From assembly GCA_002449695.1 (NCBI GenBank), contig DJXI01000010.1:10063-43373 (forward strand): a stretch of 33,311 nt of DNA. Reading direction: 5' to 3'. Position 1 is the first letter of the stretch. Every line of letters begins with the position of its first letter. Of the stretch, positions 6,190 through 27,199 are shown piece after piece. Below the pieces are notes generated by a model that did not search any database, was not told the origin of the DNA, and saw only the letters and a list, made by a program, of their open reading frames with translations. Origin of the DNA: Verrucomicrobia bacterium UBA7008. Its GTDB lineage: Bacteria; Verrucomicrobiota; Kiritimatiellia; RFP12; UBA1067. The position numbers were made by a program, and so were the translations under genes.

Positions 6190-6198
6190 AGTATATCA
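6190..6198 (-). promoter_or_regulatory. Extended -10 promoter of fhs, leaderless
   Basis: The minus strand reads TGATATACT, then seven bases, then the fhs ATG. The TATACT hexamer is 6190-6195 and the TG extension is 6196-6198. The expected start of transcription falls on or within a base or two of the start codon. The TGA of this element is also the stop codon of the upstream debranching-enzyme gene. Confidence 0.7.
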
Positions 6199-10053: not shown

Positions 10054-10061
10054 GATTGAAT

Positions 10062-10070
10062 ATTTTATCA
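10062..10070 (-). promoter_or_regulatory. Extended -10 promoter of debranching enzyme, leaderless
   Basis: The minus strand reads TGATAAAAT followed by eight bases and the ATG at 10053. There is no usable Shine-Dalgarno: the G-run lies 20 nt upstream, outside the predicted transcript. Spacing and sequence match the fhs, murCB and ddl promoters. Confidence 0.6.
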
Positions 10071-10077
10071 AATCCCC

Positions 10078-11978: not shown

Positions 11979-12047
11979 GTACCTGTGGCAATCAGGTGCG
12001 ACCCTTTGCCTCACTCAATTTATTGTGGCAATCGCATCTGATCCGAC
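11979..12047 (+). repeat. Two copies of the TGTGGCAATC dispersed motif
   Basis: Copies at about 11983-12005 (CTGTGGCAATCAGGTGCGAC) and 12013-12047 (core TTTATTGTGGCAATCGCATC) are in direct orientation. Both match the terminal inverted repeats of the element at 28592-28806. The second copy overlaps the last nine codons of the esterase-GH97 gene. Confidence 0.75.
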
Positions 12048-15000
12048 ATTCGCGAGAAGCGGATGATGAAGCCGCCGCCGGGGGCCATGTGAAGAGTGAA
12101 CTTCTCACCCGAGCGAACGGCTCTTTTCTCATGTACAAAGTGCGTCGGCTCGGTGTCAGCATCGTCTGCGTCGCGAAAGAACTCGGCCTTCCACTCGCCA
12201 TCGCCTAGTAAATCTGTCGTAAACTCGAAATCTCGCGCCTCTTTGTCCGTGATTCCCGCCGCATACCATGCGCCGTCTCTCCCCTTGCGCGCTACGGCGG
12301 CGAAGGTGTCGGGCGAACCACCGAGCGCAACAGTGTCCGCCCACACCGTCGGCACATTCGCCATGAACGCGAAGCATTCGGCGTTCCGTTCGTATTTGGT
12401 CGGCGCGTCGCAGAGCATCTGCAAAGGTGCCTCATAGAGCGCCATCATCGCCATCTGACGCACGCGCGTGCCGAGCGAACCGGGGTTGCCGCTCGTACCC
12501 TCGTAGCGCCCAAGCGGATAATTGTCCATCGCACCCGGCGTGTAGTCCAGCGGCCCCGCTGTCATCCGCAGGAAGAACGCCCGCACGTCGTTCGCCATGA
12601 AGTCTTCGTTTTTATAGCACTTCATGCACTCCAGTCCGTGAACGCCCTCGTAGTTAAGGACATTCGGATAGGCGCGGCTCATACCTGTCGGACGATGCGC
12701 GCCGTGGTAGTCGACCAACATCCGGTTCTTACGGCACTCCTCGGCGAATTTCCACAGGAACCGTTCGCACGCTGCATCGCCGCGATCCATAAAATCGACC
12801 TTGAATCCCTTCGCGCCCAGTCTGGCAAAATACTCCGCCACCCGCGCCTCGTCTCCGATGACCTGTCCCCATGCCATCCAGAGAATGATGCCGACCCCTC
12901 GCCGATTGGCATAGTCGATAAGATGCGGGACGTCCACGACCGGGCTGAACCGCCAGATGTCGAGCTTCTCGCTCCAGCCCTCGTCGAAGATGACATAGCC
13001 GATGCCGTTCTTCGCCGCAAAGTCGATGAACCGCTCGTAGGTTGCGGTCGTGCACCCCTCGGGGTCGCCCTTGTTGTCAAACGCATTCCACCAGTCCCAT
13101 GCGACCTGGCCCGGCTTCACCCACGAGAAGTCGTGGCCCCCGGCGGGGGCTCTGGCGAGCGCCCAGACGATGTCGGCCTCGCAGAGCTTCGACGGCTCGT
13201 CCGCAAGAATGAAAACGCGCCACGGAAACGTGCGCGTTCCCTCGGTTCCCACCAGTTCGTCCGCAAACGACGTAACGGCCTCCCAGCGCCCGCGCGTCTT
13301 GCGCGCAACCTGTTGAGACCAGTCATTACCAACCTCGGCGTAGCATGTCGTCTTGGGCAACGGCGCGAACAGCGCATCAAATGCGGACGAGCCCTTTCCT
13401 TTCACGAGATTCCAGATTGGATAGTCGCAGACGTCCGACTCCGTCACGGCGACCGTCTTGCCACCGACCTCATAGACGAACGGCAGATAGACCATGCGAC
13501 GCGGGCCATTCGCCTCGGTTGCGACATCACGGACGCGCATCGCCTCCGGCACGGTTTCCTCAAGGCCGAAATCGCGCGTGAAATTGAGCCAGCACCGCGC
13601 CGCGCCGTCCGGCACCGCAACACCCGCCGTCTCGCCGTCCACGTGGATGCGCCCCGGCATCTTCGTCTCAAAGCGGTAGGCAACGCCGTCGTCGCGCGCC
13701 GCGAGCGCAACCCCCCAGTCGCCGAAATCAAGAAACGTTTCGTTGCGCGCGACATCCACCTGGGACTTCTTGTAGACGGGCGAAGGCACGAGTTCCTTTC
13801 CGGTCACGGCTTTGCGCACAACGGTTTTCGGCTCTGCCACGCCTTCCGACAGACTCGTGCCGTCCACGGCAAGATCGAGCGGCGTTGGGGCGACCAGAAC
13901 CTTTCCGTCGCGCCGCACCTCGTAGCACAGCGGATTCAGGCTGACGGAGATTTCATTTCGCCCGTCCGGCGACACGGCGACGCAGGCGCTTGAATTGGCA
14001 GCACGTGCGGGCAATCCGACCACGTCCGCCGCGAACGGGCCGAGAGGAAGGGACATCTGGTTGTACACCGTTCCCATCGTGCGCGGGCGGACGAGATAGC
14101 GCACCTTGACCGGCGCGGCCACCTCCTCCGACTTGACGACCAGCTCGACGCCCTTCACGACGCCATTCTTTTCGACGTTCTGAAGTTTGGCGCTCTTCCA
14201 CTCACCGTCTTCGCCCGCAACTTCGAAGGCCGGCTCAATCGACCAGTCTGGCGCATAGACATACCAGCTCTTGACATGCTTGAACGTCATCGCAACCGCG
14301 CCATCCTCCACTCGCCTTGCCGATTCCAGCACGGGTGAATCGTCCTCGTCGATGGCAAAGCCATAGTCGCGCTTGAGCGCATGGACGGCCAGCCGCTTGG
14401 CGACAATCTCCTTGTTGTTCGGATGAATGTCGTCAAAGTTTCCGACATCCGCCGTCACCGCAAGCGCCGCATTCGGCTCTTCCGCGCAAAAACGGTTCTG
14501 CGCCGTGCAGATGCCCAGCCAGTTCTGCGTGTACGGAGCCAGTTGGACGAGATAGAACTTCAGTCCGGGATTCGCAAACTGGCGAGACCAGCCGTTGTAA
14601 AGCGCGTGGAGCTTGGCGCAATAGAACTGCGACTCGCCATTGTTGTGGCAGCCCTGATACCAAATCAAGCCGCGCATCGCCATCGGCGCCCAGCTGTCCA
14701 CCATGCCATTGAACAGCACCGTCGGCTGCTGATGCGCGCCGCCAATCGGCCCTTTCCTCATGGAGTTGTCCCAGTTGTCCGCAATCGGGAATTCCGCCGT
14801 TTCGCGAATCGACTCGTCGCAGCCCGCGTAGCCGCAGCGCGGCGTCCAGGCGTCAATGTTCGTGCCGCCCCAGCTTGCGTCAACAATTCCTACAGGGACT
14901 CCGCCAAGAGCGAGGTAAATCTCGCGTGCATAGTAGTAGGCGACCGCCGAAAGCGTATAACCCGTGAAGGACGCGGACTCAAACTTCTTCCAACCCTGCG

Positions 15001-15496
15001 ACTTTGCGCGCGCGGGCATCGCCGACCACGCCTTGTCATTCTTCGCAAAACGGATATTCGGCAAATGGTCCATCGCGGTGACGAGTGAACCTGCGCCGTC
15101 GCGGTAGCGCGGGTTGCCGCCCCAGATCGGGCACTCCATGTTGCTCTGGCCCGACGCGAACCACACCTCGCCGACGAGGATGTCGGAAATTTCAACGCGG
15201 TCGGTCACGGTCTCGCCCGTACGCTCCGTCACCGTCATCGCACGATTCTCGGACGATGCCGTCATCGCGGGCAGCTTGAGCAACCAGTTGCCGTTCGCAG
15301 CAGTCTCAGTGGCGACTTCCGCGCCCGCGAAAGCAACGGTGACACACGAATCTGGTTCAGCCGTGCCCCAGACCGGCACCTCAACGCCGCGCTGCAACAC
15401 CGCCTGGTCCGAGAACGGCGTGCCCATCTCGATCTTCGCCTGCGACAATCCGGTAGCCAGCGCCGCCATCAGCGCCAAACATTGCTTCATCCTCAT
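12020..15496 (-). CDS. Sialate O-acetylesterase - GH97 fusion, secreted
   Basis: This 1158-residue exported enzyme joins two activities normally on separate proteins. After a signal peptide (MRMKQCLALMAALATGLSQA), residues about 20-500 form a SASA-type SGNH esterase. The nucleophile Ser is in WFASGQSNME and the Asp/His pair in DDIHPNNKEIVAKRLA; it should remove O-acetyl groups from glycans. Residues about 505-1148 are GH97: VSPDGRNEISVSLNP, then YVIFDEGWS, then KGFKVDFMDRGD near residue 898. An Asp in KVDFM is typical of retaining GH97 alpha-galactosidases, whereas inverting alpha-glucosidases use Glu bases; this specificity is an inference. AAAGGAG eight bases upstream picks the ATG at 15496 over in-frame upstream codons. 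The last nine residues (MSDQMRLPQ) come from a dispersed repeat. Confidence 0.88.
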   Translation of the reverse strand: MRMKQCLALMAALATGLSQAKIEMGTPFSDQAVLQRGVEVPVWGTAEPDSCVTVAFAGAEVATETAANGNWLLKLPAMTASSENRAMTVTERTGETVTDRVEISDILVGEVWFASGQSNMECPIWGGNPRYRDGAGSLVTAMDHLPNIRFAKNDKAWSAMPARAKSQGWKKFESASFTGYTLSAVAYYYAREIYLALGGVPVGIVDASWGGTNIDAWTPRCGYAGCDESIRETAEFPIADNWDNSMRKGPIGGAHQQPTVLFNGMVDSWAPMAMRGLIWYQGCHNNGESQFYCAKLHALYNGWSRQFANPGLKFYLVQLAPYTQNWLGICTAQNRFCAEEPNAALAVTADVGNFDDIHPNNKEIVAKRLAVHALKRDYGFAIDEDDSPVLESARRVEDGAVAMTFKHVKSWYVYAPDWSIEPAFEVAGEDGEWKSAKLQNVEKNGVVKGVELVVKSEEVAAPVKVRYLVRPRTMGTVYNQMSLPLGPFAADVVGLPARAANSSACVAVSPDGRNEISVSLNPLCYEVRRDGKVLVAPTPLDLAVDGTSLSEGVAEPKTVVRKAVTGKELVPSPVYKKSQVDVARNETFLDFGDWGVALAARDDGVAYRFETKMPGRIHVDGETAGVAVPDGAARCWLNFTRDFGLEETVPEAMRVRDVATEANGPRRMVYLPFVYEVGGKTVAVTESDVCDYPIWNLVKGKGSSAFDALFAPLPKTTCYAEVGNDWSQQVARKTRGRWEAVTSFADELVGTEGTRTFPWRVFILADEPSKLCEADIVWALARAPAGGHDFSWVKPGQVAWDWWNAFDNKGDPEGCTTATYERFIDFAAKNGIGYVIFDEGWSEKLDIWRFSPVVDVPHLIDYANRRGVGIILWMAWGQVIGDEARVAEYFARLGAKGFKVDFMDRGDAACERFLWKFAEECRKNRMLVDYHGAHRPTGMSRAYPNVLNYEGVHGLECMKCYKNEDFMANDVRAFFLRMTAGPLDYTPGAMDNYPLGRYEGTSGNPGSLGTRVRQMAMMALYEAPLQMLCDAPTKYERNAECFAFMANVPTVWADTVALGGSPDTFAAVARKGRDGAWYAAGITDKEARDFEFTTDLLGDGEWKAEFFRDADDADTEPTHFVHEKRAVRSGEKFTLHMAPGGGFIIRFSRMSDQMRLPQ

Positions 15497-15523
15497 TGTT
15501 CTTTCTCCTTTGCTTTCCATCTT

Positions 15524-15529
15524 TTTATA
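15524..15529 (-). promoter_or_regulatory. Possible internal -10 upstream of esterase-GH97 gene
   Basis: The 85-bp gap between the two fusion genes contains TATAAA on the minus strand, about 28 bp before the ATG at 15496. No TG extension or good -35 is visible. It may allow separate transcription. Confidence 0.3.
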
Positions 15530-15581
15530 TCGCCACACGCCACGCTCAAGGTTCCTCCGACCGTGTCGTATCGACCGTATC

Positions 15582-18500
15582 TCAAGGGCTCCTCTCGCAC
15601 GGCTTGATCGTCACCAATCCGTTCGTACGGCGTCCGCTGACGCGGCGGCCGTCGGAGAGCGCGACATTCTCGAACGAGACATCCCGCCACATATCAGGGC
15701 AGCCGCGGAAATAGTGGACTTCGCCGTTGATTTCGTGCACCAGCAATTCGAGGACTGCCGTCGCGGCTGCGCATTGCCCGTCCATCTGCATGACGTCGCG
15801 TCCATTGCGCAAGTTCGTAAAGCCGTCGAAGACTGCGTTATGGTGCGAGCCATGCCCCTCGTCGCAGAAATACGCGTCCCAGGCGCGAAGCATCTGGACG
15901 GCCGCGACCGCATTGCCGGCATCGACATGGAGAACGGAAGCCCACGGCACGCACCAGCCCGTCCACAGACCCGTGCCGCGCAACGTCCAGTTTTCATAGG
16001 AACTGTCGATCATCTCGCGGTTCTCGCCCTTGCCGCGCGGGATCGTGTCAAACGGGTAGAGACCCGCCAGATGCGAGTGGTGGCGATGGCTCTCATGGAG
16101 ATTGACGCCTTCGAAAATCGCAAGGCCGTCCGAGACCGCATTGCCCCAGACAGCTGCGTCGCCGACAGTCTCCGTGATGCGGGAGAACGCGGGGAGGCGT
16201 TTCTCGACGTCCAGCCAGCGGGCGTCGGGCGTCTCGCCAATCCGCGCAGCGGCGTCTATCAGGTCTTGCGCCAGGCGATGGCAGGCCGCCAGCTGGAAGC
16301 TCGGGTTGCGTCCGACGGCGCGGCGGGTGTCGGTGCCCATCCATTCGGGGCTCGGACCCAGCGGAATCGAAAGCCGCCCGTCCCTTTCCTCCAACATTGC
16401 GAGATAGACGTTCATCGCGCCCTTCATGAAATCGTAGGCCCCGTCCTTCAGAAACGCGAGGTCGCCCGAATACTTCACGTAGCGGTACATGTACGAGGCC
16501 ATCCAGGCCGCCGACGCATGGTCTATCGTACCGGTCCAGAAGCCGCCGATGCAGACACCGCGGTCGTCGACGGAATGCGGCAGCACATAGCCGTCGTCTA
16601 TGCCGCAGAATTTGCGGGCGTTCTCCCTGAGAAGCGGACGCCACGACAAGATCATCCGAAAGAGCGGCATCAGATGCGCAAAATGTCCCCCGCGAAAGGC
16701 CGGCGAATAGCACGCCTGCACGTTGATGTTAAAATGGTAGTCGCCGTTCCACGGCACGAGCATTTCATCCTCAAGCCACGGCCCCTGCAACCCCGCCGGA
16801 ACGCCTTCTGGATCGGTCATCGCCCCGAATCGGTACATGCCGTAGTCGAATATGCGCTGAATCACGGGGTCGGGCACCTTTACGCGCGCGCCTTCCTGCC
16901 AGAAGCGACGCCATTGCGCAGTTGAGGCGGCGGCGACCTTCCCGTAATCGCAGCCGCCGGAAACTACCTCGCCGCCACGCCCCGTGCGCAGGCAGAGGTC
17001 GCCGCCATGTTTGCGCCAAGAGAGCCACACCGACTCGTCGGCGGGGAGACGCCACCTGAAACCGCCGTTGCCTTCGATGGCACCGTCAAAGGACACGGCC
17101 TTCTCAAAGCCGACCGACTTGAGACTCTTTTCATAGACTGCGGTTTCCGTCGCCGGGACGCTCTTCACGTCATATGCGACTCCCGCCGGGAAGCGCGCGG
17201 CAAAAGCACGATCCGCCTTCGACATCGCAAGCTCCACCTGTCCGCCCTCGGCAAACTCGATTGCCGCGAGTCCAGTACGCGTGTCGAGCCAGCCGCGCTT
17301 CAGCGTCTTGCCGTGCACCTTCACAACGACCCGACCAAGCGGCAGCATGTAGGGATTGCGCGGCTCGACGGCGGGCGTGGATTTCTTGAACAAGGAGCGG
17401 AGCCTTTCGTCCTGACGAGCCCGCCAAAGCGCGACGATGTTCGTATAGCACTGCTCGTCAGTCCAGGGATATCCGCCGCGATGGTCCCATAAGTCGGCGC
17501 GTCCGATGGTCAGGCGCAGTTCGTCGCCGCCGCCCCAGACAAGGACCCCTGTCACGCCATCCGAAAACGCCATGCCCTCGTGGCAGTTGCCCATTCGCGG
17601 AAACAGCCACTCGACGACACCCTCCGGCTTCTGCCTCTTGGCCAGAACGGCCTTGAACTTCGTGACGAACTTGTGCTCGCGACTTCGCGGAGCCGTCACA
17701 AAGACCGTCGTCGCCGGATGCGTGCGCAGGTCGTTGCGTCCGACGAACCACCCGGCAAGGGACGGGCTCGTCCGCCCGACTGCGGCAGAAACGCGCTCAG
17801 CGCCGTCGAACGACATTTCAAGCGCCCATTTGCGGCCATGTCCGTAATCTGCGCGAAGGGAACGTCCGTCGGCGGCGATGACGACATTGGTTGCGTCGAG
17901 ATGGAACAGGAGCGCATATTCGTGCTCCGCGCCGTCCGCGCTCCGCACGTCGTCCGTCACGGTAAAGGCGTCGGCAACTTTGTCGAAGCGTATCTCGCGG
18001 CGATGCACCGCAAGTTTCGCCATCTCCGGGCCGAATCCCTGGTCGTACACGCCGAACGCAAAATCGCCCTCCGGCGACGTCGTCCATCCGGCATCGATGG
18101 GACAGCCGCTTTTGCGCGGTTCTTGGCGGTTCTGGGCAAATCCGTCCACGAGAAGCGTGTTATGGTCATGGCCGGACAGCGCGTATCGGCGAAGTTCCGA
18201 ATCCTCGTACTGCCCGCCGCCGTCGTCGAACACGAGCTCCTCCGCCCCCTTCCAGAAGGTAAAGGACAACTTGTCCTGGTGGTCATGGTTCATTCCGAGC
18301 GGTCCGACGTCAAAGGCAAGATACGATGAATCTTCCGACCAGCCGCCACGCATGACCGCGAAACCGGCGTAGGGGAGGTAGCGGGATGCCGTTTCGCCGC
18401 AAGGCGGTGCGCCTTTCCGTCCGCCGCTCGCCCCCCACAGGAAGTCGCTTCGCTCCGGGAAAAAATCCGAGGCGTGGCGCAACACAAAGGACGCTGGGAT

Positions 18501-21500
18501 CGTGTAGCAGTCGTTGAAACGCGGCAGGACAAACCCAGGCGTTGTCATCGCAAGCGTCCCCTCCGCGCCGCGACGGAGGCAGTCCCGGAAATCGGCGGGC
18601 AGTTCGCCTTCAAGACCCGCTGCAATCGCAAGACGGTAGATTTCCGCCATCGTCGAATAGAGCACGCCATGGTAGTCCGGAGAAAGTTCGTCGTGGATGC
18701 CATCCGGCAGAAGCTGCGCGCGGACTGCCGCCGTAAAGCGCCTCAACGCCTCCTTGCGCATTTCCTCCGCGCCTGGAATCTCCGGGAACGTGACGGCAAA
18801 AACATAGACGCCGGACATCTCCATCAGCAACCAGTTGTACCCCGTCGAATGGGACAGAAGGTGCCGCGCCTGCGCCTCGGAAGATTGGACAAACGCGAGA
18901 AGCAGGTCGTCGGGAAACGACGGCGACTTGCGGAACACCTCGAATGCCGCATGCCACGACCGGGAAAGACGCAACCCCTCCTCGATCGTTCGCCACGGCG
19001 AGTCGACTTCATTGTATCCGCTCTCGGACGGAACGCCCCCCGTTTGGCCAATCCAGTCGGCGAACTGCCCCGCGAACGCACGTGCATATTTCTCGTCGCC
19101 CGTCTCGTCATAGGCCCGAGCGAGAGTCGTCCAGCCCTCCATTCTGTTGAGCTGCCACGTCCACTCAGGGTTGAACGGCCCCATTTCCTTGGTGGGATTG
19201 AACAGCCAGTCGATGCGGTTTGAAGGGAATGCCCACGGAATGTTCACAACCGTAACTTCACCAGCTGCAATTCGATCCGCCGCCTTAAGATCCAATGGCG
19301 GGCTCATCCGCCACCTGTCCGCACCCCAGTCCGGCGATGCAAGTCTCTTCCGGTAATAGGCGGCCGTCGGGTTCGCGTGCCGGTTGAAATCTGGCGCAAC
19401 AGACGTCATTTCAAAGACGAGTTCGCCGCCGGCCATGATGTCGGAATGGCGAATTTTCCAATCGACAATCGGCTTCCCGTTCAGCGTCACCGACTTCACG
19501 TACTTGTTCTCGCGGGAGAGGTTCTTTGCTATGATTGTGAAGTTGTTTGGCCGTGTAGAACATGTAGAACGTGTAGAAAGCGTCACCTTCGGCACCTGGG
19601 GCGCACCGATGATGTACTCGCCGCCGCAGGGATTGAACGGATAGAAGCCCATCGCAGAAAATAGATACCACGCGCTCATCTGCCCACAATCATCGTTACC
19701 GCAGAGCCCATCTGGTTTGTTGATGTAGAATCTGTCAAACACATCGCGTATGCGCTCCGCCGCCCTTCCCGGATAGCCGACTTGCGGATAGAAATAGATA
19801 ACATGATGGCTCGGCTCGTTGCCGTGGACATACTGCCCGATCAGTCCCGTGACATCTACCACGCACCCGGGCCCTTCCACCTTCTCAGGATGCAAGAAGA
19901 GCGAATCCAGCTTCTTGACGAACATGTCGCGCCCTCCCATCGCATCGACGAGTCCCTTCGGATTCTGCAACACGTGCCATGTGTACTGAAACGCGTTCCC
20001 CTCGGTAAAGTCATTCGCCAAATCCGCGCCATGTCCGATTTCATAGGGGTTGTACGGCTCACGCCAGTTGCCTTTCGAGTCCTTGCCGCGCACAAGGCCG
20101 ATGGTTGGGTCGAACACGTTGCGCCAATTCTCCGATCTCTTAAAGAAGAACTCCGCATCTGCTTTAAGGCTTTCGTCCCGTTCCCCATCCCCCGTTCCCC
20201 ATTCCCCCAGCTTTTGCGCCATCATGCCCGCGCACCAGTCGTCATAGGCGCATTCCATCGTACGGCTCACACTTTCGCCCTTTATCTTGTCAAACGGATA
20301 GTAGCCGTACTTGTCGAGCAAGTCCCACCGCTCCTTGATGCGCCCTTCGTGCGGCTTCGTGAGCGTGTCCTTGATTTGCGCATAGGCGGAAAGCCAGTAG
20401 TCCTTTTGTTTTTTGAGAGGATTAACAGGATTGACAGGATTTGTGTCATCCCCATTGGCTGTTTCCATATTTTCATATTTCCATAATTCCACATTTCCAC
20501 ATTCTTTCAAGAACCAATCCACAATCACCGGAACGGAATGCGTCCCGATCATGCACTGGTTTTCGATTCCCCACAGAGACCAAACGGGAAGATAGCCAGT
20601 CCTCCTTCCTTGCTCCAGCATAGAATCGACGAACTCCGCCTCCTTCTCCGGCACGATAATCGTATAGAGCGGATGCGCCGCGCGGAAGGTGTCCCATGTC
20701 GAGAAGGTCGAATAGAACGGCTTCTCTCCGACATCGGCTATGTTGTTCGGTTGGGAACAGAGGTGGTAAAGGGCTGTATACCAGCTGCGCCTCTGGTCCT
20801 CCGACCCCTCGCAGGTCATGCGCGAGAGAAGCACATTCCACACATCTCCCGCAGCGACGCGAACGCCGTCAAAGTCCCATCCGGGAATCTCTGCGTCAAG
20901 ATTCTTCGCCGCTCCACTGGCTCCTGTCGCCGAAAGTCCAACCTTCATCATCAGCGGCCTCAACCCCGATGCGAACGTCGCCACGTATCGCGGCGCCTCG
21001 TCAGGCGTTCCAAGCGTCCCCGGCACACGTTCAAGCCTTAGCCAGTCACGGTCGAATTCGATTGCATAGGCGACCTTGCGACGCGAAATCCATCCCGTGC
21101 GGAAATATTCTCCGCGCAGCCCATGCGCCTCGACAACCTCGCTCTTGGCGCCGTCCGTACGAACATTGACCTTGTCTGCATCTGGCTCGTAGACGTGGTC
21201 CCCCAGACCGAACGGCAAGTTGACCAGCACCTTGATCTCGCTGTTCCGACCGCCGCTCATGCGATAGATCGCCGCCCGTTGGGTCGCCGCGATCTCGACG
21301 CAGATGTCGTCCTCGGGCTGCACGACCGAATAATATCCCGGAGTGGCCTTTTCGGACGACTTGTCAATCTTCCGCCGCATCGGCATAACGCCGAAATCCC
21401 CCGTGAACGGCAGAATCTGCACGTCACCGCAGTCAGGGCATCCAGTTCCAGACAGGTGGGTCTGCGAATAGCCTATGACCGCGCCGTCCTTGTATTGATA

Positions 21501-21689
21501 GCCGGAGCAGTACGACCAGTCGTTGCACCCCGTGTCAGGCCCGGCCTGTACCATGCCAAACGGACGGCACGCCGCAGGATGCGTATGGCCCGTCCCGGCG
21601 GTTCCGACGAACGGATCGACGTAGTCGGTCAATGCTCCAAAAGCGGCGGCAGCTGCAGCCATGAAGGAAATGGAAACTGTCTTTCTCAT
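15582..21689 (-). CDS. Three-enzyme fusion: GH92 + heparinase II/III + GH95-like
   Basis: This single uninterrupted 2035-residue reading frame starts at ATG 21689, overlapping the upstream stop by 4 bp (ATGA). A signal peptide (MRKTVSISFMAAAAAAFGA) is followed by GH92 alpha-mannosidase to about residue 760 (DYVDPFVGTAGTGHTHPAAC, GNEPSHHVIYFYPQVGYPG, CGNDDCGQMSAWYLFSAMGF). Residues about 765-1350 are heparinase II/III-like lyase: an alpha/alpha toroid, then GMNHDHQDKLSFTFWKGAEE, DDGGGQYEDSELRRYALSG and HDHNTLLVDG. Residues about 1355-2035 are GH95-like (alpha-L-fucosidase family): a N-domain from EWLFPRMGNCHEGMAF, then WNGDYHFNINVQACY, IPLGPSPEWMG and HRHHSHLAGLYPF. No internal signal peptide remains, which suggests true gene fusion. 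Four in-frame short-period repeats lie in the GH92 part. Substrate and activity of each domain are inferred from family. Confidence 0.88.
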   Translation of the reverse strand: MRKTVSISFMAAAAAAFGALTDYVDPFVGTAGTGHTHPAACRPFGMVQAGPDTGCNDWSYCSGYQYKDGAVIGYSQTHLSGTGCPDCGDVQILPFTGDFGVMPMRRKIDKSSEKATPGYYSVVQPEDDICVEIAATQRAAIYRMSGGRNSEIKVLVNLPFGLGDHVYEPDADKVNVRTDGAKSEVVEAHGLRGEYFRTGWISRRKVAYAIEFDRDWLRLERVPGTLGTPDEAPRYVATFASGLRPLMMKVGLSATGASGAAKNLDAEIPGWDFDGVRVAAGDVWNVLLSRMTCEGSEDQRRSWYTALYHLCSQPNNIADVGEKPFYSTFSTWDTFRAAHPLYTIIVPEKEAEFVDSMLEQGRRTGYLPVWSLWGIENQCMIGTHSVPVIVDWFLKECGNVELWKYENMETANGDDTNPVNPVNPLKKQKDYWLSAYAQIKDTLTKPHEGRIKERWDLLDKYGYYPFDKIKGESVSRTMECAYDDWCAGMMAQKLGEWGTGDGERDESLKADAEFFFKRSENWRNVFDPTIGLVRGKDSKGNWREPYNPYEIGHGADLANDFTEGNAFQYTWHVLQNPKGLVDAMGGRDMFVKKLDSLFLHPEKVEGPGCVVDVTGLIGQYVHGNEPSHHVIYFYPQVGYPGRAAERIRDVFDRFYINKPDGLCGNDDCGQMSAWYLFSAMGFYPFNPCGGEYIIGAPQVPKVTLSTRSTCSTRPNNFTIIAKNLSRENKYVKSVTLNGKPIVDWKIRHSDIMAGGELVFEMTSVAPDFNRHANPTAAYYRKRLASPDWGADRWRMSPPLDLKAADRIAAGEVTVVNIPWAFPSNRIDWLFNPTKEMGPFNPEWTWQLNRMEGWTTLARAYDETGDEKYARAFAGQFADWIGQTGGVPSESGYNEVDSPWRTIEEGLRLSRSWHAAFEVFRKSPSFPDDLLLAFVQSSEAQARHLLSHSTGYNWLLMEMSGVYVFAVTFPEIPGAEEMRKEALRRFTAAVRAQLLPDGIHDELSPDYHGVLYSTMAEIYRLAIAAGLEGELPADFRDCLRRGAEGTLAMTTPGFVLPRFNDCYTIPASFVLRHASDFFPERSDFLWGASGGRKGAPPCGETASRYLPYAGFAVMRGGWSEDSSYLAFDVGPLGMNHDHQDKLSFTFWKGAEELVFDDGGGQYEDSELRRYALSGHDHNTLLVDGFAQNRQEPRKSGCPIDAGWTTSPEGDFAFGVYDQGFGPEMAKLAVHRREIRFDKVADAFTVTDDVRSADGAEHEYALLFHLDATNVVIAADGRSLRADYGHGRKWALEMSFDGAERVSAAVGRTSPSLAGWFVGRNDLRTHPATTVFVTAPRSREHKFVTKFKAVLAKRQKPEGVVEWLFPRMGNCHEGMAFSDGVTGVLVWGGGDELRLTIGRADLWDHRGGYPWTDEQCYTNIVALWRARQDERLRSLFKKSTPAVEPRNPYMLPLGRVVVKVHGKTLKRGWLDTRTGLAAIEFAEGGQVELAMSKADRAFAARFPAGVAYDVKSVPATETAVYEKSLKSVGFEKAVSFDGAIEGNGGFRWRLPADESVWLSWRKHGGDLCLRTGRGGEVVSGGCDYGKVAAASTAQWRRFWQEGARVKVPDPVIQRIFDYGMYRFGAMTDPEGVPAGLQGPWLEDEMLVPWNGDYHFNINVQACYSPAFRGGHFAHLMPLFRMILSWRPLLRENARKFCGIDDGYVLPHSVDDRGVCIGGFWTGTIDHASAAWMASYMYRYVKYSGDLAFLKDGAYDFMKGAMNVYLAMLEERDGRLSIPLGPSPEWMGTDTRRAVGRNPSFQLAACHRLAQDLIDAAARIGETPDARWLDVEKRLPAFSRITETVGDAAVWGNAVSDGLAIFEGVNLHESHRHHSHLAGLYPFDTIPRGKGENREMIDSSYENWTLRGTGLWTGWCVPWASVLHVDAGNAVAAVQMLRAWDAYFCDEGHGSHHNAVFDGFTNLRNGRDVMQMDGQCAAATAVLELLVHEINGEVHYFRGCPDMWRDVSFENVALSDGRRVSGRRTNGLVTIKPCERSP
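19552..19578. repeat. In-frame 9-bp array, three units
   Basis: Three consecutive units of CGTGTAGAA/CATGTAGAA lie in the GH92 part of the fusion gene and encode STRSTCSTR. Confidence 0.85.
20180..20207. repeat. In-frame 7-bp array, four units
   Basis: Four consecutive heptads of the type GTTCCCC/ATTCCCC lie in the GH92 part. The coding strand reads GGGGAAT/GGGGAAC and encodes LGEWGTGDGERD. Confidence 0.85.
20415..20441. repeat. In-frame 9-bp array, three units
   Basis: Three units of AACAGGATT/GACAGGATT encode NPVNPVNPL and are followed by the lysine-rich KKQK. I recall similar ACAGGATT strings as intergenic repeats in unrelated bacteria; that is memory, not a search. Confidence 0.85.
20463..20502. 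repeat. In-frame 8-bp array, five units
   Basis: Five octads of the type TTCCATAT/TTCCACAT lie 21 bp from the previous array. They encode about CGNVELWKYENMETAN. Together the two arrays make a long low-complexity insert in GH92. Confidence 0.85.
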
Positions 21690-23011
21690 GGCCGGTAATA
21701 TTGAATGAAGGCCGCCAAAGGAATCCCCATCGAGGGATAGCTGAAATACGGATGCGGCGTTCCACGATAGACCCGATAGACGCCGTTGGAGCAATTTTCA
21801 TGGGGCATCGTCTGCGGCCCTGTTTCAAAGCAGTAGCCGTTTTCCGCATCGATGCAAATGCCCAAATCCAGCAAGTAGAACCCTTCGTCCTCGCGGCGGT
21901 CGAACGTCCGGATCAACCAATCGCGGAACCGCCACATGGCCGCGTCCTGGTACGGCGTGAAATCACCGACGGCATTGTCAATCGGCCCGCAGGTCGAGCA
22001 GGGAATGCAGATGACAAACTTGCCCTGTGGACAGGCCTTGAGATACGCGTCCTTCATGATGGCGACTCGGCGCCCCCATTCCGTGAAATCGGCCTTGACA
22101 TCATGGCGGAAATCGTTCAGCCCGAGGAGCACGAAGACGAACTGCGGCGGCGGAATCCGCCACATGTCGAGATACTTGCCGTAGTCGAACTGCCACGTCA
22201 GCATTTTCTCGTCCACAGATTGCCAGGCCTCCCCGTCGAAGCGCACCATCCGCCTCGTCTCGTCCTCGATCTGATAGTCGCCTGTGACGGGATCGAGCAG
22301 CAGGCCCGTTGTCTCGTCGAACCGCACGACGCAGTCGTCGAAGCGCGAACAGGAATAAGACGGCTCGAATCCCTTCGGCTGCGTCTTTCGGACACACCGC
22401 CAGGCCATCTTCCAGAACCGCGCGTCGCCCCAATACCGGCCGTCCTGCGGGTGGAGGAAGCCATGGTAGGCGAGATGCTCGGTCCTCGGCACGGTAAAAT
22501 ACTGCTCCATCGCCCATCCGCCGCGTCCTTCGTCGCATTGTCCTTCGGCGCACGTGCGCAGTCCGACAAGATGAAGTTTCGGAACGTAGCCCGACTCCAG
22601 AAGCGCGGACTTGAAAAATGCGCCGTGCGTGTAGCTGTCGCCGATGATCTGCGCATAGACATCCTTGGCACCGACGCCCTTCTTGCCGACGCGCAGGACA
22701 CTTTTGAGCGTCTTCACGGTCTCGAACTCGTCCCCGTTGACGAGATCGACCTTCAACACGGCGCCATCGACGCAATTTGTGATGCTCACCACGCGGCTCA
22801 GCCGCCGCGAAAAGGAAATCTTGCCGTCCTCGCAGGAAAATCTCACGAAAGCGTCATACGGACGCCACCGCCGAATCATCGGCTGGACGAAAATGTCGTT
22901 CTGCGCGTCCGACAGCATCCACAGCGTCGAGGGAAGGCAGATGTCGTTTGCCGCCGAGGCCGTCAGCGACGACACGACGAGCGCAAGGGCAAAGACGCGC
23001 TTCGGCGACAT
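21686..23011 (-). CDS. Secreted SGNH/GDSL-type esterase
   Basis: This 441-residue protein has a signal peptide (MSPKRVFALALVVSSLTASA) and an SGNH-hydrolase core. The block I nucleophile Ser is in AQIIGDSYTHG (about residue 147), the Gly/Asn block is VFVLLGLNDFRHD, and a late His is in RGTPHPYFSYPSMG. Such enzymes de-acetylate glycans, which fits its place between hydrolase genes. The N-terminal ~130 residues form a beta-rich accessory domain. The usual DxxH block is reduced to a single visible His. It is tightly coupled: one base after the upstream stop (TGAGATG) and a 4-bp overlap with the fusion gene downstream. Its substrate is unknown. Confidence 0.82.
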   Translation of the reverse strand: MSPKRVFALALVVSSLTASAANDICLPSTLWMLSDAQNDIFVQPMIRRWRPYDAFVRFSCEDGKISFSRRLSRVVSITNCVDGAVLKVDLVNGDEFETVKTLKSVLRVGKKGVGAKDVYAQIIGDSYTHGAFFKSALLESGYVPKLHLVGLRTCAEGQCDEGRGGWAMEQYFTVPRTEHLAYHGFLHPQDGRYWGDARFWKMAWRCVRKTQPKGFEPSYSCSRFDDCVVRFDETTGLLLDPVTGDYQIEDETRRMVRFDGEAWQSVDEKMLTWQFDYGKYLDMWRIPPPQFVFVLLGLNDFRHDVKADFTEWGRRVAIMKDAYLKACPQGKFVICIPCSTCGPIDNAVGDFTPYQDAAMWRFRDWLIRTFDRREDEGFYLLDLGICIDAENGYCFETGPQTMPHENCSNGVYRVYRGTPHPYFSYPSMGIPLAAFIQYYRP

Positions 23012-23012
23012 C

Positions 23013-24620
23013 TCACTTGCCTCCCAGCTTTTCCTTCAACGCAAGGTATCCGGGCTTCGGCGCCAGGTCGCGGTGAACCATCCCGAAGTGGTCTTCGCTG
23101 TAGAAGGGATCTTTCTCGTTCGACTGGAACTCGTAGAAAAACGTCCGTTCGATTCCAAGCCGCCGCGCGATATCCACCGTGGCGACGAGATAGCGGGCCT
23201 GCTCGGACTCTGTCGTGCAGCCTTTTTCAACGCAGTTGCCGACGACGACCACGGCCCCCTTGTAGTCGCTGTCGAACTGGTACAAGGCCGCGCCAGCGTA
23301 TTCACGGCCATTCTTCCCCTTGGCCGTCGTCAGCGGAATGAAACGGTCGCCGGGCTTCAGCCGTGCACCGTCGAAGAACCTGAAGCAGGCAAATCCGTTC
23401 GGCTCGAACTTGAGTCCCGCCGCCGTCGCCGCCGCCGTCGCCAGCGTCTTGGCCTTGCGATCCAGCCCGTTTTTCGCGTTCGGCCAGATCACGTTGACTC
23501 GAAACGCCTCCCACGCCAACTCGCGCCAGGCCCGTCCGGACGGAGACTTCTCGACATGCCGACCGCCCTTGTACGTGAACCACAGGGGACAACCCCCGAA
23601 ATCCACAAGCACGCCGCCATTCTTCACGAACTGCGCGACGGGCTCAATAAGATCCAGATGCCCCGCTTCGCCATAGGGGAAAACGACGGCGTCGAGCTCT
23701 CCAAGCCGCGACGGGAGCTCCCGCACCGAATACGCGCGCGCCGTCGATCCTTGCGGCAGAATGGACTGCATCTGCTCCGCGAGATCCGCGCCTTTCGCCT
23801 CGTCCTCGCAGATGTCGACATAGCCGATGCGCCATGCTTCCTGCGTCGGCCGAGCAGCCTTGAGCCCCGCCAGAAAAAGGTTGTGCAGCGGCAAAGTCGC
23901 CTTCTGCGTCGGCCAGCCGATCTCGGTAATCCAAATGGGCTTGTCCCCGTCGCCGAATTCTGCCATCAGCTTGCGCAAGGCCATCAACTGAACGTCCAGG
24001 CTGCCTTCCGGCGGTTCCGGCCACGTATAGGGATGAACGGCCATTACGTCGAAATACGGCTTGCACCCTTCATTGTAGAGTGCGCGGATGTAGCTGATAT
24101 CCACGCCGGCAAGCCCACCAAGGACGACACGGACGGACGGATCAGTCTCACGCGCCGATTCAAACGCAGCCCGCATAACGGGCGCAAAGTCGACGGGATT
24201 GGGGTTCGGCCAGAAACCGGGATGGTTTTCCTCGTTCCAGACCTCGACTGCGAAAATCCGTCCACGATAGCGTTTCAGCACCTCTTTCACGAAACGGCGC
24301 CATTCCGGCAGGTGATCCGCGACTGGCAGCGCCCATTTCGGAGGGAAGCCGACCAGAGGTACAACTTCTACTCCGACCCGTTCGGCATCGGCCACGACCT
24401 GATCGTAGCGTGAGAAGTCGAACGGTGCATCCGGCGAAGGCTGAATCCTGTCCCACGGGAAGTCGGTCCGGACACTTGAAAGTCCGGCCTGGCGCATCAT
24501 CTCAAGCGCCCTCTCCCGCGTATCGAATTCATGATCCGTCAGATGCGCCGCTACGCCGAAGGAAACTTCGTCGCAATAGGCCGACAGCGCGAGGCAGCAG
24601 ACCGCAATCGCACATTTCAC
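23013..24620 (-). CDS. Secreted GH39/GH5-like glycosidase with inserted GATase-like domain
   Basis: This 535-residue protein has a short signal peptide (MKCAIAVCCLALSAYC) and a clan GH-A TIM barrel. The acid/base Glu is in VEVWNEENHPGFW (about residue 127) and the nucleophile Glu in PIWITEIGWPT (about residue 235). Between these barrel strands and the last one (FFYEFQSNEKDPFYSEDHFG) lies an insert of about 190 residues that reads like a class I glutamine-amidotransferase-like Rossmann fold (LDAVVFPYGEAGHLDLIEPV, then VKNGGVLVDFGG). GATase-like domains are known at the end of GH42 barrels; an insertion before the final strand is less familiar. The ATG is 16 bp after the glycine-rich gene. The exact family is uncertain. 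Confidence 0.75.
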   Translation of the reverse strand: MKCAIAVCCLALSAYCDEVSFGVAAHLTDHEFDTRERALEMMRQAGLSSVRTDFPWDRIQPSPDAPFDFSRYDQVVADAERVGVEVVPLVGFPPKWALPVADHLPEWRRFVKEVLKRYRGRIFAVEVWNEENHPGFWPNPNPVDFAPVMRAAFESARETDPSVRVVLGGLAGVDISYIRALYNEGCKPYFDVMAVHPYTWPEPPEGSLDVQLMALRKLMAEFGDGDKPIWITEIGWPTQKATLPLHNLFLAGLKAARPTQEAWRIGYVDICEDEAKGADLAEQMQSILPQGSTARAYSVRELPSRLGELDAVVFPYGEAGHLDLIEPVAQFVKNGGVLVDFGGCPLWFTYKGGRHVEKSPSGRAWRELAWEAFRVNVIWPNAKNGLDRKAKTLATAAATAAGLKFEPNGFACFRFFDGARLKPGDRFIPLTTAKGKNGREYAGAALYQFDSDYKGAVVVVGNCVEKGCTTESEQARYLVATVDIARRLGIERTFFYEFQSNEKDPFYSEDHFGMVHRDLAPKPGYLALKEKLGGK

Positions 24621-24636
24621 AGTCCGACCCCCACGA

Positions 24637-27168
24637 TTATCTGAAAGTTATGACCAACCCCCGCCGTTGTGACGGGACATAGCGCACGATTACCACGCCG
24701 TCGCCGCCCTTCAACGGAGCTGCCGCAGTTGTACCGCCGCCACCGCCGCCAAGGCCGTCCGTACCGGCGGTGTTCTCGTCGCCTCCGCCGCCCAATCCGC
24801 CGACTGCGTTGTGGTCGCGCGCACTGCCCGCGCCGCCGCCGCCGTAATAGACGTTCTCGCCCGTGATGGCGCACACCTTGCCGATGCCGCCCTGGCTCGG
24901 ATTCGACGAGGCGTGCCCGTCATAGCCAGCGCCACCCGCACCGCCGCCGCCACCGGCGGCGTACTGCGTCGTGCTTCCGCCGCCCGCGTAGCCAAGTCCC
25001 GCAGTGGCTGCACCACCATAGAGCGTCGAGCCGCTGTCACTCTTCGAGCCAGAACCACCGCCCGAAGCACCGGCTACGCCCACCCCGTAATAGCCACCGC
25101 CCGCGCCGCCGCCAGGTGCTGTCACACCAAGAAGCGATGAAGCTCCGCCCGACGCACCGGCCGCGCTGCCACCCGCTCCGACGACAACATCGTATTCGCC
25201 GTTCGTCACGGCAATCGTCTTGGCGTACACGACGGCACCGCCGCCACCGCCGCCGCCATTCTGACTCGTAGAGCCATTCCATCCTTTGCCGCCAGCGCCA
25301 CCACCGCCAACCACCAGCAGTTCAAGCATGCCAGTGCCGGTCACGGTCATCTTTCCGCTCTTTGTAAAGACGCGAATCCTTTCCCCGTCCACGCGAAGCA
25401 TCCTATCGCCGCCATGGACATTAAAATCACCACTCGACTGTTTCGCCTGACGTCTGAAGCGGATAATCACAACGCCGCTGCCGCCGCTGCCGCCGCTACC
25501 GCTGCCGCCGGCACCGCCGCCACCGCCGCCAAGTCCGTTCGTACCGTTCGAATTGAAGTTGCCGCCGCCGCCCTGTCCACCATTGGCACCTATGCTAGGT
25601 CCGCCGCCGCCACCACCACCGCCGGCGTAATAAACCTCAGAACCCGTAATCGAACAGGCAAAGCCGATGCCGCCCTTACCGGGCGTTGTCGCGTCATCGC
25701 CGTCAAAGCCCGCGCCGCCCGCGCCGCCACCGCCACCGGTATAATATAGCATCAAGTTGTCGTTATTGTAGCAATTGGGGGATTTGCCGCCAGCACATCC
25801 ATGATAGTCCGGATCTGCCGTGTCGCCAGTTGCGGAACCTCCACCAATTTTCCAATCGCGCTCTGTGCTGCCGGCTGCGCCTCCGCCGCAGCCGCCATCT
25901 TGGTTTGTAGATGGGAACGCCGTCCAGCCGCGCCCCCGTCCGCCATGGCCGCCACCGGGAGCCGTCAACCCGAAAGCAACCGAGTCGCCGCCTTTTTCAC
26001 CCGCAGCGCCACCAGCGCCAACGGTAATGGCATAGCCGTCCGCCGTCTCGGCCAGGATGAAATCCTGCTTGTAGTAGAGGCCACCCGCGCCGCCGCCGGC
26101 ACCATATCCACCACTGCCCTCAAGTCCGCCGCCGCCACCACCACCGACAATCAGGATATCGGCAAGTCCTGCGCCCGTCACGTTGACCGTCGCATTCTGT
26201 GTCAGCGTAATGACCGTATCTTCCTCGAGATATTTCACCGACACGCCTTCACCTGTGGCAGAAACGGAAAAGTCCTCCGAATATCCGCTAAAGGGAATGC
26301 TGACGATCACGACGCCGCTGCCGCCGCTGCAGCCGCTGACGTTGTTGCCGCCCGCACCGCCGCCACCGCCGCCAAGGCCATCTGTTCCGTTAGCATTGAA
26401 GTTGCCGCCACCGCCAAGTCCGCCGTTGGCACCAACGCCTATTCCGCCGCCGCCACCACCGCCGCCAGCATAATAGACCTCAACTCCCGTAATCGAACAA
26501 GGGAAGCCGATACCGCCCCGACCGGGCGTCGTCGCGTCATCGCCGTCACAACCTGCGCCGCCCGCGCCACCGCCACCACCGGTGCGATACATCATGGCCT
26601 GATCGTTTTCCGATCCATAGCCAAGCGGAGAATTGCCGCCGGCAGATCCGTGATAGTCAGGATCGGTCGTGTCTCCCGTGACAGCACCACCAGAAATTTT
26701 ATAGTTGCGATCCACATTGCCTACGGCTCCGCCGCCGCAACCTCCGTCTCGGCTGTTGCCTATATCCCATCCACGTCCCCGTCCGCCATGGCCGCCACCA
26801 GGAGCCGTTAGGCCGAACGCCGACGAATCGCCGCCCTTGGCACCTGCCGCACCACCAGTGCCGACGGTAATGGCATAGCCGCCCGCCGTTTCGGACAAAA
26901 CGAAACCCTGCTTGTAGTAGAGACCGCCAGCACCGCCGCCACCGCCATACCCGCCGCTGCCTTGCGTTCCGCCACCGCCGCCGCCGCCAACTATCAGGAT
27001 GTCGGCATTGCCGCTCCCCTTCACGGTCAGTGTGCCGCTCTGACGGAACGTGACAATCTTGCGCGTTCTCGTATAGGTAACAGTGGCATTGGCATCACCC
27101 TGTATGTCAAACGCCTGCGCCGTGGCAACAGCAGTTGCCGCACCTAACATCAATAGCAGTTTTTTCAT
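24637..27168 (-). CDS. Secreted glycine-rich protein, three large repeats
   Basis: This 843-residue protein starts at the ATG at 27168, chosen because AAGGAGGTG lies just upstream. A signal peptide (MKKLLLMLGAATAVATAQAF) is followed by three repeats of about 240-290 residues. Each opens with a beta segment such as GNADILIVGGGGGGG, continues through YAITVGTGGAAGAKGGDSSA and FGLTAPGGGHGG, includes SITGVEVYYAGGGGGG and closes with SGVVIVSIPF or a similar strand. Repeats 1 and 2 are close; repeat 3 is more diverged. The pattern matches glycine-rich repeat domains seen in surface and phage-tail proteins. No enzyme motif is visible. It is first in the operon, so it may be a surface scaffold or matrix for the co-transcribed glycosidases; that role is inference. 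Confidence 0.85.
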   Translation of the reverse strand: MKKLLLMLGAATAVATAQAFDIQGDANATVTYTRTRKIVTFRQSGTLTVKGSGNADILIVGGGGGGGTQGSGGYGGGGGAGGLYYKQGFVLSETAGGYAITVGTGGAAGAKGGDSSAFGLTAPGGGHGGRGRGWDIGNSRDGGCGGGAVGNVDRNYKISGGAVTGDTTDPDYHGSAGGNSPLGYGSENDQAMMYRTGGGGGAGGAGCDGDDATTPGRGGIGFPCSITGVEVYYAGGGGGGGGIGVGANGGLGGGGNFNANGTDGLGGGGGGAGGNNVSGCSGGSGVVIVSIPFSGYSEDFSVSATGEGVSVKYLEEDTVITLTQNATVNVTGAGLADILIVGGGGGGGLEGSGGYGAGGGAGGLYYKQDFILAETADGYAITVGAGGAAGEKGGDSVAFGLTAPGGGHGGRGRGWTAFPSTNQDGGCGGGAAGSTERDWKIGGGSATGDTADPDYHGCAGGKSPNCYNNDNLMLYYTGGGGGAGGAGFDGDDATTPGKGGIGFACSITGSEVYYAGGGGGGGGPSIGANGGQGGGGNFNSNGTNGLGGGGGGAGGSGSGGSGGSGVVIIRFRRQAKQSSGDFNVHGGDRMLRVDGERIRVFTKSGKMTVTGTGMLELLVVGGGGAGGKGWNGSTSQNGGGGGGGAVVYAKTIAVTNGEYDVVVGAGGSAAGASGGASSLLGVTAPGGGAGGGYYGVGVAGASGGGSGSKSDSGSTLYGGAATAGLGYAGGGSTTQYAAGGGGGAGGAGYDGHASSNPSQGGIGKVCAITGENVYYGGGGAGSARDHNAVGGLGGGGDENTAGTDGLGGGGGGTTAAAPLKGGDGVVIVRYVPSQRRGLVITFR

Positions 27169-27190
27169 TTTACACCTCCTTGGTACGCGC

Positions 27191-27199
27191 ATTATATCA
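27191..27199 (-). promoter_or_regulatory. Extended -10 promoter of glycan operon
   Basis: TGATATAAT on the minus strand lies 22 bp before the glycine-rich gene. The predicted leader is about 15-16 nt and includes a full AAGGAGGTG ribosome site. A weak -35 (ATGACG, 27213-27218) is spaced 16 bp. It probably drives the whole operon down to the fusion gene. Confidence 0.7.

What the first reader, a model, noticed from the sequence alone, without database searches (positions are those of the whole stretch)
15582..21689. GH92 + heparinase II/III + GH95 in one 2035-residue secreted protein
Seen: one open frame with family signatures of three unrelated folds in order, one signal peptide, and no stop or leftover leader between parts. 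Known: these families are usually single-catalytic-domain proteins. Inferred: a processive or channelled enzyme that removes alpha-mannose and alpha-fucose around a uronate-containing backbone. I do not know of this combination. An alternative is a recent fusion by deletion, with one or more domains inactive.
Basis: partly seen in the sequence, partly recalled or inferred. Interest (0 to 1): 0.85.

Follow-up and report, generated by a model that had tools for sequence, protein, structure and literature searches.

The report
Three sugar-cutting enzymes in one protein
An uncultured, probably gut-dwelling bacterium encodes one giant exported protein that strings together three complete enzymes for taking apart a complex sugar polymer, and related genomes show the same kinds of enzymes joined, split and reordered.

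Summary
Window 15582-21689, minus strand, is one 2035-residue open frame: leader, GH92, a PL12-like heparinase II/III lyase, GH95. Catalytic residues of all three are present and invariant in aligned relatives. Each junction joins one enzyme's tail to the mature start of the next, with no leader or linker domain. The trio was found nowhere else: 0 of 112 relatives, 1 of 161 genomes of the order, its own. Its genus holds solo lyases and GH95s, best 74% and 68% identical.

It is one case of a wider pattern in these Kiritimatiellae. The same genome encodes GH92-FAD_oxidored-GH125-PL8 (2249 aa) and GH95-GH31-GH43 (1996 aa). The latter's GH95, at 74-83% identity, is in congeners solo, in GH95-GH31, or in GH43-GH95, reversed. 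One relative seems to have lost a fused lyase by a 634-residue in-frame deletion. I read these as concatenated exported enzymes made and unmade by in-frame deletion. The benefit is probably co-delivery to one glycan. Processivity or channelling has no support. The substrate is unknown, and neutral fusion is a serious rival.

The parts
15582..21689 (-). GH92-PL12-like lyase-GH95 protein gene, 2035 aa plus stop
   Evidence: translation without internal stop; Pfam
21633..21689 (-). signal-peptide-like leader, about residues 1-19 (by eye; no Cys near the likely cleavage site, so type I rather than lipoprotein)
   Evidence: sequence; hydropathy 2.0 against 1.19 and 0.82 at the junctions
20931..21623 (-). 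GH92 N-terminal domain, residues 23-253
   Evidence: PF17678, 1.9e-47
19404..20915 (-). GH92 catalytic domain, residues 259-762; acid E563 and base D667 by alignment with BT3990
   Evidence: PF07971, 3.1e-147; alignment; conserved in 23 of 23 rows with a letter
19353..19403 (-). junction 1, residues 763-779: GH92 tail running into the mature start of the lyase
   Evidence: comparison with solo GH92 and solo lyase termini
18435..19364 (-). Heparinase II/III N domain, residues 776-1085; N952 and Y1006
   Evidence: PF16889, 2.1e-64; residues
17673..18389 (-). Heparinase II/III C domain, residues 1101-1339; H1135 and H1176
   Evidence: PF07940, 9.2e-26; residues
17619..17654 (-). junction 2, residues 1346-1357: lyase tail followed by mature GH95
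   Evidence: comparison with solo termini
15585..17621 (-). GH95 module, residues 1357-2035 (catalytic domain 1609-1983); N1654, N1656, E1782, D1970
   Evidence: PF22124, 1.2e-42; residues; Foldseek best hits are GH95
21686..23011 (-). upstream gene, 441 aa, stop overlaps the fusion's ATG; weak GDSL-like match only (E 0.011)
23013..24620 (-). 535-aa hydrolase with best solved relatives 5jvk (uncharacterized) and PslG
12020..15538 (-). downstream fusion gene: SASA-type esterase plus GH97, 1172 aa
27249..28442 (-). regulator with periplasmic-binding-like domain plus AraC-type HTH, 397 aa

Best explanation
It is an exported polyenzyme: three complete glycan-degrading enzymes (an alpha-mannosidase of GH92, a PL12-like uronate lyase, and an alpha-L-fucosidase or alpha-L-galactosidase of GH95) end to end behind one signal peptide. 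SHOWN by sequence: intact frame, complete modules, conserved catalytic residues, leaders absent at both junctions, solo relatives in the same genus. INFERRED: each join arose by an in-frame deletion that removed the upstream stop, the intergenic DNA and the downstream signal peptide. INFERRED: each module folds and works on its own, and the gain is fixed stoichiometry and joint delivery to one heteroglycan that bears alpha-mannose, a 4-linked uronate and a terminal alpha-L-fucose or L-galactose. No product channelling or processivity is assumed.
For: Domains. Catalytic residues invariant in every aligned relative with a letter at that column, matched to literature residues for PL12 and GH95. 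Folds: Foldseek of residues 256-1356 finds GH92 7zgm (3e-31) and HepC 4mmh (4e-23) in one model; residues 1098-2035 find GH95 8zbv (2e-22). Junction anatomy. Leader-like hydrophobicity (my threshold) at 1 of 63 inner junctions of the fused proteins, the query's two included, against 101 of 110 N-termini. The lyase module's sister is a solo gene, L041 (97/95). The GH92-lyase protein P0004 lies elsewhere on both module trees, so that pairing seems to have arisen twice. Possible co-substrate logic in the same genome: GH95-GH31-GH43 (families that act on xyloglucan side chains, established knowledge) and a chain with two alpha-mannosidase families plus PL8. Overlap with its upstream gene in a cluster of carbohydrate genes. 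In-frame deletion is seen in L047 against P0039: 634 residues absent, leader and tail of the lost lyase kept.
Against: The trio is known from one genome (1 of 161), so it is not conserved as a long-selected machine would be. Fusions also hit housekeeping genes here (MurC-MurB; RpiB-SHMT), which hints at a general fusion bias. Several other enzymes looked at in this genome are not in very long frames: 3 of 5 GH95 matches lie in 724-751-aa frames (for one of them, on C60, one search prints 1214, while the fetched locus shows 732) and 3 of 3 GH28 matches in 408-809-aa frames; both GH92 matches are in frames over 2000 aa. GH92 partners are very diverse, more than one substrate would explain. No glycan that needs exactly these three activities was identified. 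No expression, activity or read-level data.
Confidence: 0.55

Rival explanations
1. Neutral fusion: a deletion-prone lineage keeps joining genes in frame. The enzymes work independently, the joining has no benefit, and it is soon undone.
For: Housekeeping fusions MurC-MurB and RpiB-SHMT. The trio is confined to one genome. Partner families are diverse. Solo and fused forms alternate at 74-83% identity, and one fused form seems to have reverted to solo.
Against: Leaders are absent at 62 of 63 inner junctions and modules are complete, so selection at least keeps the modules exportable. GH95-GH31-GH43 and GH92-GH125 group families that can share a substrate. GH92-lyase seems to have arisen twice in the same order.
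Confidence: 0.3
2. Exported polyprotein: the chain is cut after export into three free enzymes.
For: Modules are complete and joined by short stretches; model confidence dips near junction 1.
Against: I did not look for a protease or a cleavage motif; junction sequences differ between relatives.
Confidence: 0.08
3. Assembly or frame artefact in a metagenome-assembled genome.
For: One draft genome (81.85% complete, 94 contigs); no reads. The protein's 90% cluster lists 11 member sequences but only 1 contig, so it is no independent confirmation.
Against: Two in-frame joins at exact module ends with leaders absent; coding-type third-position GC across the junctions; two more such proteins lie in the same genome.
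Confidence: 0.04
4. One or more modules are dead leftovers.
For: GH92 carries N665 where BT3990 has an aspartate, but so do solved GH92 enzymes 7zgm and 6f8z in the same call.
Against: The other catalytic residues are invariant in aligned relatives; modules are full length.
Confidence: 0.03

Closest known systems
Sulfatase-glycoside hydrolase gene fusions of Kiritimatiellales strains F1 and F21 (PMC6388578, two passages)
   Same: Same wider lineage; authors infer fusions of S1_7 sulfatase with GH10 or GH32 domains and cite similar ones in Polaribacter and Planctomycetes.
   Different: Other families; marine strains; as far as the passages say, two activities per gene. GH92 and GH95 have 0 occurrences in that text.
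Multicatalytic CAZymes: CelA and CbXyn10C/Cel48B of Caldicellulosiruptor (PMC6892212, search listing), archaeal GH5-GH12-GH12 (PMC12265866, abstract), CE15-GH8 (PMC8417218, search listing)
   Same: Two or three catalytic modules in one chain.
   Different: The Caldicellulosiruptor and archaeal examples carry binding modules (abstract text). Here three complete enzymes of other families are joined without a recognised binding module.
CelAly, GH5 cellulase plus PL31 alginate lyase of Aquimarina (PMC13235733, abstract)
   Same: A hydrolase and a lyase in one chain for mixed polysaccharides; nearest in idea.
   Different: Two catalytic modules of other families with three substrate-binding modules; marine.
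B035DRAFT_03340 GH92 (PDB 7ZGM), alpha-1,3-mannosidase for plant N-glycans (PMC9522356, passages)
   Same: Closest solved relative of the GH92 module.
   Different: Stand-alone GH92 protein encoded next to a PNGase gene.
HepC / heparinase III, PL12 (PDB 4MMH, 4FNV)
   Same: Fold and catalytic Asn, Tyr, His.
   Different: 22% identity to 4MMH over the fold alignment; NCBIfam HepC models score far below cut-off (150.6 of 700 bits), so heparan sulfate is not implied.
GH95 alpha-L-fucosidases (AfcA, BH0842, Pontiella 8ZBV)
   Same: Catalytic domain and residues.
   Different: N-terminal part divergent (no PF14498 match); fucose against L-galactose not decided.
P0004, a metagenomic GH92-heparinase II/III protein (1191 aa)
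   Same: Same order of the first two modules.
   Different: Both modules lie elsewhere on the trees; no GH95; begins at query residue 108, so probably cut at its 5' end.

Membership tests
GH92 | GH92N plus catalytic domain over curated cut-off | tested here: met
   162.5 and 491.7 bits against 34.5 and 24.6; TIGR01180 531.2 against 249.55
GH92 | catalytic Glu acid and Asp base | tested here: met
   E563, D667 aligned to BT3990 chain residues 514 and 625 (counted by hand); invariant; the BT3990 numbers E533 and D644 and their roles are recalled
GH92 | calcium-dependent alpha-mannosidase activity | not testable with these tools
   needs assay
PL12 | toroid plus beta-sandwich lyase fold with Asn, Tyr, His triad | tested here: met
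   PF16889 and PF07940; fold match; N952, Y1006, H1135 align with chain residues 216, 270, 400 of 4MMI/4MMH, that is N240, Y294, H424 of PMC12088678 with a constant offset of 24
PL12 | heparan-sulfate lyase equivalog (NCBIfam HepC) | tested here: not met
   150.6 and 95.2 bits against 700 and 600; filed as PL12-like only
GH95 | GH95 catalytic domain over curated cut-off | tested here: met
   146.8 bits against 27
GH95 | Glu acid with Asn, Asn, Asp | tested here: met
   E1782, N1654, N1656, D1970 invariant in 23 of 23 rows with a letter; roles from PMC11943901; assignment by motif alignment to 2rdy and 4ufc, not to AfcA itself
GH95 | alpha-1,2-L-fucosidase specificity | not testable with these tools
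   family also holds L-galactosidases (recalled)
Multicatalytic CAZyme | two or more intact catalytic modules in one exported chain | tested here: met
   sequence only; activity and export not tested
Multicatalytic CAZyme | binding modules or linkers between catalytic modules (common, not obligatory) | tested here: not met
   no binding module among Pfam matches; direct joins

The most novel reading that the evidence does not exclude
A family of gut Kiritimatiellae uses covalent concatenation of whole enzymes as its own way of organising glycan breakdown, in place of cellulosomes or Sus-type loci. One chain carries the exo-enzymes and lyase for one glycan, and modules are joined, dropped and reordered by in-frame deletion between sister species while their sequences stay about 80% identical. 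The GH92-lyase-GH95 trio is a fresh product of this.
Probability: 0.4. Interest if true: 0.8.

Novelty: new variant of a known kind. Interest (0 to 1): 0.58.

Why it matters
If right, these genomes hold many natural multi-enzyme chains in which the fused set hints at one glycan, so architectures become a reading key for unknown substrates. Congeners with the same orthologous enzymes fused, split or reversed are ready-made natural controls for an old question: does covalent fusion of enzymes improve degradation, or is it neutral? The direct joins without recognised binding modules are also possible models for engineered enzyme chains.

Tried and rejected
Channelling or processivity: no support. 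The two models are more confident within domains than overall (pTM 0.64 and 0.58), so no mutual orientation was read from them. A first alignment for the second model misaligned the lyase rows and was replaced.

Operon-then-fusion by simple stop loss: none of the 31 named loci had two of the three modules together (many loci end at contig ends), so no unfused neighbour pair was found as a precursor.

P0004 as ancestor of the trio: rejected by both module trees, though the GH92 tree was a quick search with a simple model and long branches.

Substrate: heparan sulfate not accepted as a default (HepC models far below cut-off). Plant N-glycan, xanthan-like oligosaccharides (GH88, GH92 and GH3 of B. 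intestinalis act on them, PMC10881899 passages), glucuronomannan gum or bacterial exopolysaccharide (PslG-like neighbour) all remain open. The alpha-1,2 His-Glu pair of BT3990 falls in a gap for this GH92 (which residues these are is recalled), so I lean away from alpha-1,2-mannosidase.

Literature: of ten searches, seven aimed at fused or multicatalytic enzymes. I saw their top rows only (one search matched 864 papers, 15 listed). No listed title or abstract start described this trio. One hit, PMC6388578, does report sulfatase-GH fusions in Kiritimatiellales; PMC10880615 had no relevant passage for the terms tried. Most subscription papers are not held.

Limits of counts: one search keeps only proteins of 0.55-1.75 times the query length, so it selects fusions, and scored only the 7991 best candidates; searches likewise. 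One search scored at most 2 candidates per genome and many genomes are incomplete. The GH92 tally was retyped: 126 rows retyped for the genus, 96 kept (380 or more of 464 positions); 43 retyped for the phylum sample outside the family, 42 kept; rows are related, so the p-value is only a guide. Trees mix fused-only and unselected rows, so their change counts (12, 8 and 6) are rough. Four GH92 rows with open ends got no state; L045, L046 and L052 also touch a contig end but were counted as solo. The hydropathy threshold was my own.
Full report
WHAT IS THERE. On the minus strand, window 21689 down to 15582, one frame encodes 2035 residues with no internal stop. It begins with a leader-like stretch (MRKTVSISFMAAAAAAFGA, by eye), then GH92N and GH92, Heparinase II/III N and C, and GH95, each far above its Pfam cut-off.

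ARE THE ENZYMES WHOLE? Module ends were set by comparison with solo genes of related genomes. After the motif ...GGELVFEM, solo GH92 frames L015 and L100 run on for 8 residues and L095 for 22. In the query about 15 residues follow it and then sequence that resembles the mature start of the solo lyase L041, just after its leader (by eye). The lyase's own tail (...TAPRSREHKFVTKFKAV) is followed within about 10 residues by VVEWLFPRMGNCHEG, which matches solo GH95 just after its leader. So each join keeps both enzymes complete and lacks only the inner leader. Catalytic residues: GH92 E563 and D667; lyase N952, Y1006, H1135, H1176; GH95 N1654, N1656, E1782, D1970. Each is invariant in the rows that have a letter there (23, 12 and 23 rows). 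The lyase residues N952, Y1006 and H1135 match N240, Y294 and H424 listed for 4MMH, with a constant offset of 24. The GH95 residues have the roles given for AfcA in PMC11943901 (passages); their assignment here rests on motif alignment to 2rdy and 4ufc.

STRUCTURE. Residues 256-1356 modelled at mean pLDDT 80.8; the one model matches both GH92 (7zgm, E 3e-31) and PL12 HepC (4mmh, E 4e-23). Residues 1098-2035 modelled at 67.8, with weak confidence over much of the lyase part; Foldseek best hits are GH95, first the fucosidase of Pontiella sulfatireligans. Domain arrangement is not determined.

IS THE TRIO KNOWN ELSEWHERE? Of 112 other proteins found in 5.8 billion, none lists the three families; one (P0004) has GH92 and lyase in the same order. 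Searches from the lyase region (8 others) and the GH95 region (17 others) gave none. Among 161 genomes of the order only its own has it (at most 2 candidates scored per genome). In its genus the best solo lyase is 74% identical (G084) and the best separate GH95 68% (G002 and others).

WHOSE GENOME? Named relatives (31 loci) are titled Kiritimatiellae or Kiritimatiellia, Verrucomicrobia, Lentisphaerae or just uncultured bacterium, with two distant lyase hits in Lentisphaeria and Latescibacterota. Where a title names a sample it is mostly a mammal gut (yak, sheep, deer, cattle, horse). Genome G010 of the same genus carries the same lyase gene as a Kiritimatiellae record from sheep rectum (L013 and L047). 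'Gut Kiritimatiellae' is therefore inferred.

HOW DID IT FORM? Lyase tree (16 rows): the query's sister is the solo L041 with support 97/95; P0004 lies outside the six-row clade (97/99) that holds the query. GH95 tree (40 rows, 16 fused): the query groups with L045 (reaches the contig end, so its state is unsure) and P0005 (GH2-GH95) at 100. GH92 tree (133 rows, 109 fused, 20 solo, 4 unscored): clade-mates are P0012 and P0018, where GH92 is the second module (97); solo L095 is nearest by path length; P0004 lies far off. So the three modules have different histories, and GH92-lyase seems to have been made at least twice. Inner junctions show a leader-like stretch in 1 of 63 cases, N-termini in 101 of 110. 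A deletion was seen in L047 (same gene as L013): its 668-aa frame equals P0039 (1292 aa, a PL33-like lyase plus this lyase) at 98.7% over 628 residues, minus 634 residues, in frame, keeping the leader and the tail of the missing lyase. An assembly error cannot be excluded for that one draft genome.

NOT ALONE. The same genome has GH92-FAD_oxidored-GH125-PL8 in 2249 residues and GH95-GH31-GH43 in 1996 residues. The latter gave the best test. In congeners the orthologous GH95, 74-83% identical, is solo in G008, G104, G072 and G096, joined as GH95-GH31 in G094, and as GH43-GH95, reversed, in G144. The GH95 tree puts G094 as sister of the query genome (99/99), so GH95-GH31 probably came first and GH43 was added; G144 is a separate fusion. 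In G104 and G096 the GH43 is instead the second part of a 921-aa frame, with a GH5-like first part in G104 (G096 not scanned). Across the genus 23 of 96 GH92 matches are in frames of 1000 aa or more, against 3 of 42 in a phylum sample outside the family (Fisher p 0.019; rows not independent). Against the pattern: in the window's own genome 3 of 5 GH95 matches (724-751 aa; one search prints 1214 for the one on C60, where the fetched locus shows 732) and 3 of 3 GH28 matches lie in frames under 1000 aa.

WHAT IT PROBABLY DOES. The GH92 module is nearest among solved structures to a plant N-glycan alpha-1,3-mannosidase (PMC9522356 passages). The lyase is PL12-like but not HepC. GH95 is alpha-L-fucosidase or L-galactosidase by family. 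The gene overlaps an upstream gene and sits among a PslG-like hydrolase, an esterase-GH97 fusion and a sugar-type regulator. I infer joint delivery to one heteroglycan that bears mannose, uronate and fucose or L-galactose. The substrate is not identified. Neutral fusion is the main rival, helped by MurC-MurB and RpiB-SHMT fusions in the same genome.

PRIOR WORK. Gene fusions of sulfatases with GH10 or GH32 have been reported in two cultured Kiritimatiellales strains (PMC6388578, passages). I found this on rechecking and lowered interest from 0.60 to 0.58 for it; the other odds did not change.

VERDICT. A real, intact and so far unique trio, and a new variant of a known kind (multicatalytic CAZymes). 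The wider and more surprising point is the joining, splitting and reordering of whole exported enzymes between close relatives in this lineage.

Noticed in passing
G000:C17, locus L101:1828-8577 (-): A 2249-aa protein GH92-FAD_oxidored-GH125-PL8: four enzyme families in one chain, with an MFS_2 sugar transporter gene nearby.
   Followed up: partly
G000:C54, locus L121:1939-7929 (-): A 1996-aa protein GH95-GH31-GH43; congeners hold the orthologous GH95 solo, in GH95-GH31, or in GH43-GH95.
   Followed up: yes
L047:9782-11755 (+), same gene as L013: A lyase gene that seems to have lost a fused PL33-like partner by a 634-residue in-frame deletion, keeping leader and relic tail.
   Followed up: yes
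29290-31254 (-): MurC-MurB fusion, 654 aa.
   Followed up: no
locus L121:10131-11810 (-): RpiB-SHMT fusion, 559 aa, two housekeeping enzymes in one frame.
   Followed up: no
6196-10071 (-): 1291-aa protein joining an alpha-amylase-like domain to a glycogen debranching enzyme.
   Followed up: no
12020-15538 (-): SASA esterase plus GH97 fusion, 1172 aa, next downstream of the finding.
   Followed up: no
24637-27192 (-): 851-aa protein with a glycine-rich domain (PF21722) in three stretches, on the same strand upstream of the finding.
   Followed up: no
G000:C5, locus L122:3487-7440 (-): 1317-aa frame with FAD_oxidored at 767-1181 and a weak Golvesin_C match before it; the first 600 residues match no Pfam family at E 0.001.
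   Followed up: no
P0002: GH92 followed by a second partial GH92 copy 78% identical to the query over residues 431-774.
   Followed up: no
P0003: 2459-aa protein with two GH92 modules in tandem and a GH29 fucosidase domain.
   Followed up: no
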